From Beverwykella pulmonaria (taxonomy: Eukaryota; Ascomycota; Dothideomycetes; Pleosporales; Melanommataceae): 64,000 nucleotides of DNA. The stretch is from assembly GCA_001599595.1 (NCBI GenBank), contig BCHH01000004.1, positions 2,626,882-2,690,881 of the forward strand. The letters run 5' to 3'. Numbering within the stretch: the first letter of the stretch is position 1; each line of letters begins with the position of its first letter. The notes beneath the pieces were generated by a model. The model ran no database searches. It was not told the origin of the DNA and saw only the letters and a program-made list of their open reading frames with translations. The translations under genes were made by a program, and so were the position numbers. Below are positions 38,761 to 43,333 of this stretch, one piece after another.

Positions 38761-39763
38761 TTACGGTTTCCAGCGAACATCGCCACGGCCACCTCCATCT
38801 GGCCCACCTGGACGTAAGGCCTTGAAGTCTACGTTTTGGATGACTCCGGCAACTGCAATACTCCAGCTGTCAGCACTAACATCCGAGATGTCCTGGTTAA
38901 TCCTCGACTCTTCTCCGGAAGTATTGATGAATCCGGCGAGAGCTGAACTGTTGTTCGTTGCTTTGACACCTTTGATCTTCTGTCCCGTGCGCTCATAGAC
39001 CGTTTTAGAGAGAGCTTCCTCACACATCTCCTTAAAGGCGTTGTTAGCGGCTCGCTGTCTCCCAAGCTCTTGGAGGAGCTCCTGTCTGCTCTGTTCCGAC
39101 TCCCTGCTCTGCTGCGGCGCATAGCTTAACTCACTGCCTTTGCTCACCGTAAGTTGCTGCATGTTGCTTTCTATCTCTGCGGTCTCAGTGTCAGCTCGAG
39201 CGATCTGCTGCCGAACAACGACCTCGTTCTGTTGAAGCATCATATCCTTCATCTCTTGCATCAGATTCTCTTGGCGGGATGTTGTAAGGCTGCGATATGT
39301 CAGGGAAATTGACGCAGGTTTGTAGGAGAGAAGATAGGTACATCGTCGCCGTAGAGAGTGCCACGCTAAGAGTGCCTTTGCAGTCGCTGAGCTGCCCCCT
39401 GAATGTCCTAATTCGTTCTAACCCAAACAATCCAATCTTCCATCTGTCCATCCAGAATATCTTGTCATCTGTGGAACGCTCCATCCAATGCTCCACTTGC
39501 GATTGAAACGCCCTGCATGCTCTATCACAATTTTCGACAGCGTGATTAATCTGGTTACTTAGAACAATTTGTGAGGGACCGTCTTGCAATGCTTTTTTCA
39601 AATTTTGCAGAACAGGCTGGACTGCCTGAAGGTCGGCACTGATGCCTCTGACAGTGTCGGGGGCCTCTTTGATATTGTCGATGGTTTTGGCGAGGAACTG
39701 GACGCTCTGAAGAGCGGCCGTGGTGATGCCTGCAATGGAGGCAGTAATGCTGAGAGGGTCCAT
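38761..39763 (-). CDS. HeLo-like (Helo_like_N/PigL_N) protein with two C-terminal amyloid-like pseudo-repeats
   Basis: This is a 316-residue candidate cell-death effector. Exon 1 is 39763-39342 and exon 2 is 39289-38761, with a 52 nt intron in phase 2. The start MDPLSITASIAGITTAALQS is typical of the fungal helical Helo_like_N domain, which in NLR systems can act as a membrane-targeting effector. A helical, Gln/Glu-rich linker follows. The C-terminus has two 17-residue pseudo-repeats, residues 246-262 (IKGVKATNNSSALAGFI) and 275-291 (ISDVSADSWSIAVAGVI), then a Gly-rich end. The same motif begins the NLR encoded divergently 284 bp away. There is no NTPase domain, so this is a stand-alone effector rather than an NLR fragment. 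Family and repeats are seen; function is inferred. Confidence 0.8.
38839..38976 (-). other. Two HRAM-like amyloid motif pseudo-repeats in the HeLo-like protein
   Basis: Codons 246-262 (38976-38926) and 275-291 (38889-38839) align without gaps as I..V.A[TD]..S.A.AG.I. The repeats start 29 residues apart. Two spaced, Asn/Ser/Gly-rich pseudo-repeats at the effector C-terminus is the layout of the HET-s prion-forming region. Amyloid ability is inferred, not shown. Confidence 0.55.
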
Positions 39764-40047
39764 TAAGGGTGGAAGAATACTTCAAAGAGCGTTGGTGAAT
39801 AGTTCGTTAACCCAAGTGAAGGAAAGCTGGCTATTAAGGAAGGCAACAAACTCGTATTTTGGGGGTCGCAACCAATCATCGCTTTAATTAGCGGAGGCGT
39901 AGCTGAGTGTTCGCGCATGTTATAATTAACGCTATTGCTTCAGCCTGACGAAACATTCGCGCATCTATCATACCGGTAACCCTCATACAGATCAAACGCG
40001 TTGCAATGAGATTCTGTCGCTGAGCATTCCATCGCAATAGTTCCGCG
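39764..40047. promoter_or_regulatory. Shared divergent promoter of the HeLo-like and NLR genes
   Basis: Only 284 bp separates the two proposed start codons. TATAATTA at 39921-39928 reads towards the NLR. The 9-mer TTCGCGCAT occurs twice, 46 bp apart (39910 and 39956). A common control region would co-express sensor and effector. Confidence 0.45.
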
Positions 40048-43000
40048 ATGGTCAGTGGCTCTTTGCCCCACCATCTTGTTATCAACAACACGTCCGCAAC
40101 AGAGGGTGGCCAAAGCTTTGCCGGCATCAATCTTGGAACTATAACGTATGCCAAGGACGATAGCTCTAGTAAGCATCGTCGCTGCAGAGCCTCTTCAAAG
40201 ACATGTAATTGACAGACGGTTAGACTTAAACGATGTGCTCAGGAGCTTGCCCACAGCTGCAGATGCGCAGTTCAGCGCGTACCAGCGACAACACGACCCG
40301 ACCTGCTTGCCCGACACACGCGTGGACCTCCTCCAAGAGATACACGACTGGGCCGATAGCGAAGACTCACCAAGCATCTTCTGGCTAAGCGGTATGGCTG
40401 GCACCGGCAAATCTACTATAGCGCAAACAGTGGCCACGGAGTACCACGCGAAGGGTCGACTTGCGGCGAGCTTCTTCTTCTCACGAGCGGGCGGAGACGT
40501 CAGCCACGCCGGGAAGTTCATTACAAGTGTTGCATTTCAATTGGCAAACACCATACCAGGCTTGAAGCGCAAGGTTTGCGATGCTATATTGAAGCGCATT
40601 GACATTGCAAGCCAGTCTCTTGATGATCAGTGGCAAGAGCTTGTTCTCGGTCCCCTGTCAAGTCTCAAGGACGAAGAATGCCGATCGAAATATGTCCTTG
40701 TTGTTGACGCGCTAGATGAGTGTGACGATCAGAACAATGTCCAAATCATTCTGCAACGCTTAGCTGAAGTTCAGTTACTGCAAGGTATCTGGTTACGAGT
40801 GTTTTTGACGAGCAGGCCTGAGGTTCCTATCCAGTACGGGTTTACTCAAGTACGAAGAGACCAACACCGAGACTTTGTGCTTCATGATATTGAGCCCTCG
40901 ATCATAGAGCACGACATTTCGGTGTTCTTGAGATACAGGCTTGGACTCATCGGACAGATGTGTCGGCTCAAGGCTGGATGGCCAGAAGAAATAGCTATTT
41001 CACGCCTAGTCAAGAATTCAGGTGGCCTGTTCATTTGGGCCGCAACAGCCTGTCGATTTATTGAAGAAGGCAACCAGCTTGCAGAAACGCGACTATCTTT
41101 GCTTCTTCAAAAAGACAACGGTATGCTTCCCCCAGAGCGCAAGCTTGATGAGATATATACCACTGTCCTCACCAACTCCGCCCAAGGAGAGTACAACGAA
41201 AAGGAAAGTCGGATGTTGCACGACCTATTCCGCCAAGTTGTTGGACCCGTTGTCACGCTACAAGATCCGCTGTCAGTAGCCAGTCTTGCGGAGCTGTTGG
41301 GGAAGGATGTTGCAACTTTGAAAAGGACCTTGGCCAACTTACATTCGGTTCTCGATGTGCCAGAAACCAAGTCGAATACCGTACGGCTGCTCCACCCATC
41401 ATTCCGCGACTTCCTTCTCAATCCGAGTAGATGCGCGAATCCCCAGTTTCACATTGATGAGCGTCTGGTCCATTGCGACATGTACAAGCACTGTCTCCAA
41501 GTAATGTCGAAGCACCTACGGCGCGATATCTGCAACCTCCAACATCCAGGAGTTCGTATAGCCGACTTGAGCACAACCGAAGTGAACAGACACATTCAAC
41601 CTCATGTCCAGTACGCATGCCGGTTCTGGGTGTACCATTGTAGAAGAAGCGACATAGACACAAGCAGTTGCTCTTTTATTAAAGTGTTCTTCCAAAAGCA
41701 TTTTCTTTACTGGATTGAATCGCTTGCATTGCTTGGTCGTGTCTCTGATGCGGTTCATATGGTTCATACGCTGGATTCGATGTTTTCAGTAAGAAATCCT
41801 TAATCTCGAGGAACAATGAGTGTAACTGACCTGCAAGAACAAGCAATCAAAGCCTCGTGACACGATCAAATCAACTTTACTGTCGCGCCTAAACCTTGAA
41901 AACAGGATTATTTCAGCAACTACTAAGGAAGCAGATCGTTCAAGTTTACAAGCTATAGTTCATGATGCAACACGTTTTGTCCTAGCTTTTCGACCGGTGC
42001 TTGAAGAGGCACCGCTTCAAGTGTACTACGCTGGTCTGGTATTCAGTCCAAACGTGAGCATTATCAAGAAGACCTTCTTAAACGAAATTCCAGCTTGGCT
42101 CCCATGCAGGCCTGAGGTGTCAGAAAACTGGAGCTCTTGTTTGCAGACGCTCAAAGGCCATTCGGGCCCGGTCAACGCCGTGGCCTTCTCACCGGACGGC
42201 AAGACGCTGGCGTCGGCATCGAGGGACAAGACGGTCAAGCTGTGGGATGCTGGCTCGGGGAAGGCGCGGCAGACGCTCAAGGGCCATTCGGGCTTGGTCT
42301 ACGCCGTGGCCTTCTCGCCGGACGGCAAGACGCTGGCGTCGGNNNNNNNNNNNNNNNNNNNNNNNNNNNNNNNNNNNNNNNNNNNNNNNNNNNNNNNNNN
42401 NNNNNNNNNNNNNNNNNNNNNNNNNNNNNNNNNNNNNNNNNNNNNNNNNNNNNNNNNNNNNNNNNNNNNNNNNNNNNNNNNNNNNNNNNNNNNNNNNNNN
42501 NNNNNNNNNNNNNNNNNNNNNNNNNNNNNNNNNNNNNNNNNNNNNNNNNNNNNNNNNNNNNNNNNNNNNNNNNNNNNNNNNNNNNNNNNNNNNNNNNNNN
42601 NNNNNNNNNNNNNNNNNNNNNNNNNNNNNNNNNNNNNNNNNNNNNNNNNNNNNNNNNNNNNNNNNNNNNNNNNNNNNNNNNNNNNNNNNNNNNNNNNNNN
42701 NNNNNNNNNNNNNNNNNNNNNNNNNNNNNNNNNNNNNNNNNNNNNNNNNNNNNNNNNNNNNNNNNNNNNNNNNNNNNNNNNNNNNNNNNNNNNNNNNNNN
42801 NNNNNNNNNNNNNNNNNNNNNNNNNNNNNNNNNNNNNNNNNNNNNNNNNNNNNNNNNNNNNNNNNNNNNNNNNNNNNNNNNNNNNNNNNNNNNNNNNNNN
42901 NNNNNNNNNNNNNNNNNNNNNNNNNNNNNNNNNNNNNNNNNNNNNCGCCGTGGCCTTCTCGCCGGACGGCAAGACGCTGGCGTCTTCATCGTGGGACAAG

Positions 43001-43333
43001 ACGGTCAAGCTGTGGGATGCTGGCTCGGGGACGGCGCTACAGACGCTTAGCGTCGACTTCGTTGTACGAAGTCTCTCGTTCTCTGACGCAGGATCCTGTC
43101 TCTGGACCGACAAAGGGGTACTACTTACCACGAAGCTTCCGAACCGTGCAGCCCTTCCTCAACCGGCTTCTCCGCCACTGATATCTGTTGAGGAAGATTG
43201 GATTTGTCGTAACGGTGAAAGAATTCTTTGGCTCCCTTCCGAGTACCGCCCTCAATTTGTCTCTGTTCACAATAGTGGTGTTGGATTTGGGTACTCTTCT
43301 GGCCGAGTGTGGGTCACAAACTTTGTGTTCTGA
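40048..43333 (+). CDS. NACHT-WD40 NLR (HET-E/NWD2-like) with N-terminal amyloid-like motif, interrupted by an assembly gap
   Basis: This is a STAND-type receptor. Exon 1 is 40048-40145, exon 2 40216-41788 and exon 3 starts at 41838, enters the gap at 42343 and resumes from 42946 to the stop at 43333. Exon 1 encodes [11 protein letters not shown] and the motif [17 protein letters not shown] (residues 12-28). The join leads into the usual pre-NACHT block, [18 protein letters not shown]. Walker A is GMAGTGKST (residues 92-100) and Walker B lies in [10 protein letters not shown]. The linker after [21 protein letters not shown], is family-typical. WD40 repeats of 42 residues follow, with variable positions GPVN/GLVY, ASRD/SSWD and GKAR/GTAL. 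The frame differs across the gap only because the N count is not exact. Without exon 1, a start at 40148 would lose the motif. Confidence 0.88.
40081..40131 (+). other. HRAM-like motif at the NLR N-terminus
   Basis: Codons 12-28 of the NLR encode [17 protein letters not shown]. It matches the two effector repeats at Ile-1, Ala-6, Ala-14 and Gly-15, and has similar residues at positions 4, 7, 10, 12 and 16. Its place just before the NACHT lead-in is where NWD2 carries its amyloid motif. Confidence 0.5.
42144..43060 (+). repeat. 126 bp tandem WD40 repeats
   Basis: Units begin at CAGACGCTC (42144, 42270) exactly 126 bp apart, and the last unit follows the gap. The flanking units are nearly identical in DNA. 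Differences sit mainly in codons that change amino acids on the predicted WD40 face, with a few silent changes. The true number of units is hidden by the gap. Confidence 0.9.
42343..42945. other. Assembly gap (603 N)
   Basis: The gap falls inside the WD40 repeat array. The same codon (GCC of AVAFSPDG) is 644 bp apart across the gap, which is five repeats plus 14 bp. The stated gap length therefore cannot be exact if the unit is 126 bp. Confidence 0.99.

What the first reader, a model, noticed from the sequence alone, without database searches (positions are those of the whole stretch)
38761..43333. Candidate amyloid-linked NLR/HeLo-like effector pair, divergently transcribed
The HeLo-like gene (minus) and the NACHT-WD40 gene (plus) start 284 bp apart. 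Placing the NLR start at 40048 with a 70 nt intron reveals [17 protein letters not shown] just before the NACHT lead-in. This aligns without gaps to two repeats at the effector C-terminus, sharing Ile, Ala, Ala-Gly and small polar residues. HET-S/NWD2 in Podospora uses the same plan: one motif in the NLR, two in the effector, adjacent genes. Here the effector domain is Helo_like_N, as in HELLP-type systems, so the combination may be a new motif class. Gene structures and alignment are seen; amyloid templating and cell death are inferred.
Basis: partly seen in the sequence, partly recalled or inferred. Interest (0 to 1): 0.9.

Follow-up and report, generated by a model that had tools for sequence, protein, structure and literature searches.

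The report
Likely fungal amyloid death-signalling gene pair
Two neighbouring fungal genes probably form a cell-death alarm in which a sensor protein switches on a killer protein by passing it an amyloid shape; the design is a known one, but sensors of this group seem to have exchanged the trigger segment while the killer stayed much the same.

Summary
A HeLo-like effector gene (minus strand, 316 aa) and a NACHT-WD40 NLR gene (plus strand) are divergent, 284 bp apart, with two repeats at the effector C-terminus and one related segment at the NLR N-terminus. The same genome holds a second copy of the pair and a third whose effector is decayed; they correct the NLR intron to 40169-40223. 'New motif class' is not supported for the effector: both repeats fit the published HET-s-related amyloid motif (HRAM: Q3, hydrophobic 5/8/10/16/18, G19, 8-residue loop), most like HRAM2, and align with Podospora HELLF, whose prion domain is solved (6eka). 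AlphaFold2 gives both repeats the same strand pattern. The NLR segment (r0) is a divergent HRAM, linked to the effector repeats mainly through a second, canonical r0 type in sister NLRs; the window's r0 alone is not significant. The new part: closely related NLRs with closely related effectors carry either r0 type, interleaved on the NACHT tree, suggesting exchange of the trigger exon. Amyloid formation, templating and killing are inferred from the family. New variant of a known kind.

The parts
39342..39763 (-). Effector exon 1: HeLo-like (PF17111) domain
   Evidence: gene model; PF17111 1.3e-28; paralogue on C9 with an intron at the same codon
39290..39341 (-). Effector intron, 52 nt, GT...AG
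   Evidence: C9 copy 54 nt at the same codon; homologous proteins read through the same junction
38761..39289 (-). Effector exon 2: rest of the helical part, C-terminal motif region, stop
38926..38988 (-). r1, first 21-residue HRAM-like repeat (aa 242-262)
   Evidence: profile match starting at 38988, score 53.3 (the profile includes this family)
38839..38901 (-). r2, second 21-residue HRAM-like repeat (aa 271-291)
   Evidence: profile match starting at 38901, score 50.7
39764..40047 (.). 284-bp divergent intergenic region (shared promoter region, inferred)
40048..40168 (+). NLR exon 1, 40 residues, carries r0
   Evidence: 86% and 80% identical over 35 codons in the two paralogues, dN/dS 0.08 and 0.13
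40069..40131 (+). r0, divergent HRAM-like motif (NLR residues 8-28)
40169..40223 (+).
   Evidence: same splice phase in C9 (53 nt) and C10 (57 nt) copies
40224..41788 (+). NLR exon 2: NPHP3_N (PF24883 1.2e-31) and NACHT (PF05729 1.4e-9)
41789..41837 (+). NLR intron 2, 49 nt (inferred)
41838..43333 (+). NLR exon 3: WD40 repeats, interrupted by 603 N at 42343-42945, then C-terminal tail

Best explanation
The locus is a two-gene amyloid signalling module of the HET-S/NWD2 and HELLF kind. The NLR senses something through its WD40 repeats and oligomerises through NACHT. Its N-terminal r0 segments then stack into a beta-solenoid seed that templates the two C-terminal repeats of the HeLo-like effector; this releases the helical HeLo-like domain, which attacks membranes and kills the cell. 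Shown here (sequence): gene pair, motif positions, purifying selection on the motifs, recurrence of the pair, predicted strand pattern of the repeats. Inferred from the family: amyloid folding, templating, cell death, WD40 ligand sensing. The effector repeats belong to the HRAM superfamily, most likely HRAM2; the r0 is a divergent HRAM.
For: (1) Effector r1/r2 fit the HRAM rules printed in PMC4518210: Q3 in 69 of 73 r1 and 72 of 74 r2, G19 in 72 of 73 and 72 of 74; hydrophobic (Ala counted) at 5/8/10/16/18 in 92% and 98% of cells, against at most 58% for r1 in 16 other registers, and for r2 87% at +8 and at most 67% elsewhere; opposite charges at position 4 in 61 of 69 distinct pairs, same sign in 0; loop of 8 (6-18 in print for 154 of 155). 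(2) The two G19 are 2 of only 4 invariant columns in 47 effectors, 6 of them of the HELLF group. (3) HELLF, a distant homologue, has its prion domain solved, 6eka. (4) AlphaFold2 gives both repeats the same strand pattern. (5) The canonical r0 type (r0-B) matches the effector-trained profile: 13 of 14 rows at 0 of 200 shuffles, P0173 at 2; profile links r0-A/r0-B 94%, r0-B/r1 87%, r0-B/r2 92%, 0 of 200 column shuffles each. (6) Pair in two copies in this genome plus one with a decayed effector, and 11 pairs of equal contig length elsewhere, 4 of them on contigs of 10,055 bases or less. (7) dN/dS of exon 1: 0.08 (window/C9), 0.13 (window/C10), 0.25 (C9/C10); r1-r2 0.09.
Against: The window r0 lacks three HRAM features: position 3 is L, 8 is T, 16 is S. 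Direct profile comparison r0-A/r1 is 9.6% and r0-A/r2 2.8% (1 and 4 of 200 column shuffles as good). Only 4 of 19 rows labelled r0-A reach 0 of 200 shuffles with the effector profile, and an N-terminus without an evident r0 (P0137) does so too. Pfam's HET-s prion-domain model (PF11558) does not match, though it does not match HELLF either. HRAM's usual K/R at 15 is rare here: 1 of 73 and 2 of 74. Foldseek finds no solved relative of the predicted C-terminal model. 3 of 11 paired NLRs have no r0 as annotated; in Eremomyces an r0-A NLR (P0109) lies on a contig of another length than the effector P0017. The full-length model's best structural matches lie in the range usual for unrelated helical bundles.
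Confidence: 0.8

Rival explanations
1. One reading: a new class of amyloid signalling motif, distinct from HRAM, PP and sigma, on both sides.
For: No Pfam prion-domain match; the r0 exon has its own strongly conserved wording in 16 of the 120 NLRs seen (read by eye), with L/T/S where HRAM has Q/hydrophobic/hydrophobic; no paper in the library holds any of six motif strings, one of them a hypothetical variant.
Against: The effector repeats fit HRAM and align ungapped with HELLF (by eye). A. fumigatus and Cadophora, which have members here, are listed with HRAM2 only in the 2015 table; Aaosphaeria arxii with one HRAM2 and one HRAM5.
Confidence: 0.1
2. The NLR exon-1 segment is a conserved N-terminal element with another job (assembly, localisation), and the similarity to the effector repeats is chance; the neighbours are linked for another reason.
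For: Window r0 alone is not significant with the family profile (31 of 200); direct profile scores with r1/r2 are weak.
Against: Four relatives of the same exon do match the effector profile (P0116, P0113, P0112, P0122: 0 of 200 each), and in 17 of 19 labelled rows the best place in the scanned part is the same register; r0-A/r0-B link 94% with 0 of 200 column shuffles as good; the segment alternates with a canonical r0 in otherwise closely related NLRs.
Confidence: 0.15
3. Apparent r0 exchange is a gene-prediction artefact: each NLR has both r0 exons, or predictors pick different first exons.
For: The foreign NLRs are seen as predicted proteins only; some lack any r0 (P0127, P0228, P0180).
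Against: In the window, L006 and L007, where the DNA is in hand, the effector-trained profile, which finds r0-B, finds nothing near the score of true motifs beside the pair (best other score 11.4, at window 7469, far from the pair; an exon split by an intron could be missed); P0117 and P0119 differ in the WD40 part too, so they are distinct genes.
Confidence: 0.25

Closest known systems
HELLF and its NLR FNT1, Podospora anserina (HRAM5 in PMC7889193, passages read)
   Same: HeLo-like domain (PF17111) plus two C-terminal HRAM repeats; gene next to an NLR gene; sequence homologue; r1 aligns without gaps including Q3 and G19 (by eye)
   Different: 25% identity (P0102); HELLF has Q at position 18 where this family has A/T/V; its NLR r0 was not seen here
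HRAM2 subfamily (PMC4518210)
   Same: Q at position 3, no Q at 16/18, two repeats, HeLo-like effectors; species overlap (A. fumigatus, Cadophora, Aaosphaeria arxii)
   Different: logo and alignment of HRAM2 are in figures/supplement not seen; the window's r0 lacks Q3
NLR40 motif of PMC9815663 (HRAM-related, 24 NLRs, no effector neighbours in its Table 1)
   Same: an HRAM-like motif known on the NLR side only; r0-A could be this motif
   Different: its logo is a figure not seen, so identity is unknown; here the neighbour effector is seen
HET-S/NWD2, Podospora anserina (HRAM1)
   Same: divided plan: r0 on the NLR, r1 and r2 on the effector, adjacent genes
   Different: HeLo instead of HeLo-like; N instead of Q at position 3; no PF11558 match
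HELLP/PNT1 (PP motif), Chaetomium globosum
   Same: HeLo-like effector controlled by an NLR by amyloid signalling (passages)
   Different: PP motif has a G-hydrophobic-Q-hydrophobic-G core, absent here; a PP-like pair exists elsewhere in this genome (L012)

Membership tests
HRAM (HET-s-related amyloid motif) effector | two repeats of about 21 aa with a loop of 6-18 at the C-terminus of a HeLo/HeLo-like/SesA protein | tested here: met
   r1 242-262, r2 271-291, loop 8; PF17111 and SesA matches
HRAM (HET-s-related amyloid motif) effector | hydrophobic at 5, 8, 10, 16, 18 and G at 19 in both repeats | tested here: met
   (Ala counted as hydrophobic); G19 invariant in 47 sequences
HRAM (HET-s-related amyloid motif) effector | opposite charges at facing positions of r1 and r2 | tested here: met
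   position 4: 61 of 69 opposite, 0 same sign; position 13: 27 of 69 opposite, 0 same sign
HRAM (HET-s-related amyloid motif) effector | preference for K/R at position 15 | tested here: not met
   1 of 73 r1 and 2 of 74 r2; a preference in print, not a requirement
HRAM2 subclass | Q at position 3, no Q at 16 or 18 | tested here: met
HRAM2 subclass | clusters with the published HRAM2 sequences | not testable with these tools
   file S1 not available; only species overlap in Table 1
HRAM r0 on the partner NLR | single copy at the N-terminus with hydrophobic 5, 8, 10, 16, 18 and G19 | tested here: inconclusive
   window r0 meets 5, 10, 18, 19 but has T8, S16, L3; 4 relatives of the same exon match the effector profile at 0 of 200 shuffles, the window at 31 of 200
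HET-s prion-forming domain PF11558 | match to the Pfam model | tested here: not met
   HELLF also has no match, and 38 of 155 HRAM proteins matched in PMC4518210
HRAM amyloid beta-solenoid | two-rung beta-solenoid fold | tested here: inconclusive
   AlphaFold2 gives the same strands in both repeats; Foldseek finds no solved relative
HRAM signalling pair | amyloid templating and cell death | not testable with these tools
   needs experiment
HELLP-type (PP motif) | G-h-Q-h-G / NxGxQxGxN core in NLR and effector | tested here: not met
   absent from r0, r1, r2 by reading

The most novel reading that the evidence does not exclude
The amyloid trigger is an exchangeable exon: NLRs of this group swap the r0-bearing N-terminal exon (divergent 'PHHL...[12 protein letters not shown]' type versus canonical 'TQLISGV...AGTV' type) by recombination while the partner effector keeps nearly the same r1/r2, so one effector can be fired by two r0 types that share few residues. 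This would mean that r0 compatibility is far looser than motif classes suggest, or that swapping re-tunes the threshold of the switch.
Probability: 0.45. Interest if true: 0.7.

Novelty: new variant of a known kind. Interest (0 to 1): 0.52.

Why it matters
Which side chains let one amyloid template another is an open question in amyloid signalling (HELLF/HET-s cross-seeding work, PMC7889193, passages). Testing the two r0 types against one effector would show directly how much sequence likeness templating needs.
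Full report
What is there. The effector gene runs on the minus strand from 39763 to 38761, with a 52-nt intron at 39341-39290, and encodes 316 residues. Its N-terminal part matches PF17111, the HeLo-like family of the fungal NLR literature (1.3e-28), and SesA (2.6e-6). The NLR gene starts at 40048 on the plus strand, 284 bp away, and carries NPHP3_N/NACHT domains and WD40 repeats; 603 N at 42343-42945 interrupt the WD40 part.

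Correction of the gene model. The genome in which the window lies holds two more copies of the pair. On C9 effector (302 aa) and NLR (open over exons 1 and 2, the part examined) are divergent, 1.5 kb apart. On C10 the NLR is likewise open over exons 1 and 2, but the effector is a remnant: only the part matching residues 4-141 is found, with stops, and no r1/r2 segment. The window intron is therefore 40169-40223. Exon 1 is better conserved than the rest of the compared stretch: 86% and 80% identical to C9 and C10 over 35 codons, against 66% and 50% over 523 codons; dN/dS is 0.08 and 0.13, and 0.25 between C9 and C10, against 0.17 for the rest (window/C9; not computable for C10). A search of the genome with exon 1 gave these three places only.

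The effector repeats are HRAM. The published HRAM pattern (PMC4518210; Results, one Discussion section, figure legends and tables read) asks for two repeats of about 21 residues, a loop of 6-18, hydrophobic residues at 5, 8, 10, 16, 18 and G at 19. The window has r1 at 242-262 and r2 at 271-291 with a loop of 8. In the aligned family (97 rows; 73 with complete r1, 74 with complete r2) Q3 stands in 69 of 73 and 72 of 74, and G19 in 72 of 73 and 72 of 74. The hydrophobic pattern, Ala counted, is met in 92% and 98% of cells in this register (71 rows); r1 reaches at most 58% in other registers, r2 87% at +8 and at most 67% elsewhere. Facing charges at position 4 are opposite in 61 of 69 distinct pairs and never alike. 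The usual K/R at 15 is rare (1 of 73, 2 of 74). With Q3 and no Q at 16 or 18 this reads as HRAM2; A. fumigatus and Cadophora, listed in the 2015 table with HRAM2 only, and Aaosphaeria arxii, listed with one HRAM2 and one HRAM5, all have members of this family. The HRAM2 alignment itself was not seen.

Known relatives. The homologue search (108 proteins) reaches Podospora HELLF (P0102, PODANS_3_9900; the gene number is given as hellf in PMC9815663) at 25% identity. HELLF is a HeLo-like protein next to an NLR gene whose C-terminal domain propagates as a prion (PMC7889193, passages); that domain is solved as 6eka. HELLF aligns without gaps to r1 by eye. In 47 aligned effectors, 6 of them of the HELLF group, the two G19 are 2 of 4 invariant columns and the two Q3 are nearly invariant. 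Like this family, HELLF has no match to PF11558, so that negative says little. Class names differ between papers: the 2015 table gives Podospora one HRAM4 protein besides HET-s, later papers call HELLF, or a P. anserina example, HRAM5.

Predicted structure. AlphaFold2 on a close homologue (P0001) with 47 sequences gives helices to 242, then strands 245-251, 256-262, 274-280, 285-291 in blocks of pLDDT 72-86. The window's own 78-residue C-terminus (mean pLDDT 72.1, pTM 0.55) gives strands at positions 3-6, 9-10 and 15-21 of both repeats. That resembles the strand and arch grammar described for HET-s rungs. Foldseek links neither model to a solved structure at E<=0.001, so the fold is a prediction only.

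The NLR segment. A profile trained only on effector r1/r2 was run over 122 of 123 NLR N-termini with 200 shuffles each. It finds two kinds of r0. Of 14 rows of the canonical kind (r0-B, for instance P0117, P0118, P0120, P0131, P0134, P0151, P0181) 13 are at 0 of 200 and P0173 at 2. The window's kind (r0-A, 19 rows) scores lower: P0116, P0113, P0112 and P0122 are at 0 of 200, P0149 and P0171 at 1, P0115 at 2, P0164 at 3, P0123 at 6, C10 at 14, C9 at 15, P0110 at 16, P0114 at 17, P0109 at 20, P0111 at 22, the window at 31. In 17 of the 19 the best place in the scanned part is the same register (16 printed; P0126 by its score); in P0128 it was the second best by a small margin, and in P0203 it was not. 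Outside both kinds P0119 (a third N-terminus) and P0137 (no evident r0) are also at 0 of 200. Profile-profile comparison gives r0-A/r0-B 94%, r0-B/r1 87%, r0-B/r2 92%, each with 0 of 200 column shuffles as good; r0-A/r1 is 9.6% (1 of 200) and r0-A/r2 2.8% (4 of 200) (18 r0-A, 9 r0-B and 66 effector rows). So r0-A is best seen as a diverged HRAM, reached through r0-B.

Pairing elsewhere. Eleven effectors and NLRs were matched by eye through equal contig length. Four pairs sit on contigs of 10,055 bases or less; in Cadophora gregata the locus tags are consecutive (ONS95_014768 and ONS95_014767); for the other six only the contig length is shared, adjacency is not shown. Of the 11 NLRs 4 have r0-A (P0112, P0113, P0114, P0122), 4 have r0-B or a near form (P0120, P0151, P0181, P0168) and 3 have none as annotated (P0127, P0228, P0180). 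In Eremomyces an r0-A NLR (P0109) is on a contig of another length than the effector P0017.

Exchange of r0. On a tree of 43 chosen NACHT domains the r0 types, labelled by eye, are interleaved: r0-A needs 12 changes, at least 10 forced by well supported branches, against a shuffled mean of 14.3 (73 of 500 as low); r0-B needs 9, at least 7 forced (15 of 500 as low). All three labels together need 16 against 19.5 (3 of 200 as low), so there is some clustering. In one fully supported group (P0120, P0112, P0118, P0117, P0119) three different N-termini occur. P0112 (r0-A) and P0120 (r0-B) agree at 446 of 505 later positions but at 9 of 35 in the N-terminal segment, and their paired effectors P0001 and P0002 agree at 288 of 316, with r1 identical and r2 18 of 21.

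Mechanism. By analogy with HET-S/NWD2 and HELLF: WD40 sensing, NACHT oligomerisation, r0 stacking into a seed, templating of r1/r2, and membrane attack by the HeLo-like domain. Only the sequence anatomy is shown here.

Verdict. A real, conserved pair of the amyloid-signalling type; the effector motif is not a new class. The divergent r0 and its apparent exchange are the parts worth following.

Noticed in passing
L012:994-1374 (-) and L012:1495-2382 (+) (same genome, C10 near 1,027 kb): A second HeLo-like effector (PF17111 1.3e-20) ends in VTFGNNNTGFQAGIINGGV and lies divergent to an NLR-like ORF whose start reads IAFGDRNCGFQAGIINGHV: a shared motif with the G-h-Q-h-G look of the PP class.
   Followed up: partly
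L007:3017-3394 and 3686 onward (C10 copy): Third copy of the pair: NLR with an open r0 exon, effector decayed to a first-exon remnant without r1/r2: possibly an orphan receptor that could act on the effectors of the other copies.
   Followed up: partly
window 42343-42945: 603 N inside the WD40 array; the reading frames on either side do not agree with a 603-base spacing, so the gap length is probably approximate.
   Followed up: no
whole genome G000: 25 PF17111 stretches at E<=0.001, 21 over the cut-off (exons count separately): many HeLo-like genes, whose C-termini were not surveyed for amyloid motifs.
   Followed up: no
   Followed up: partly
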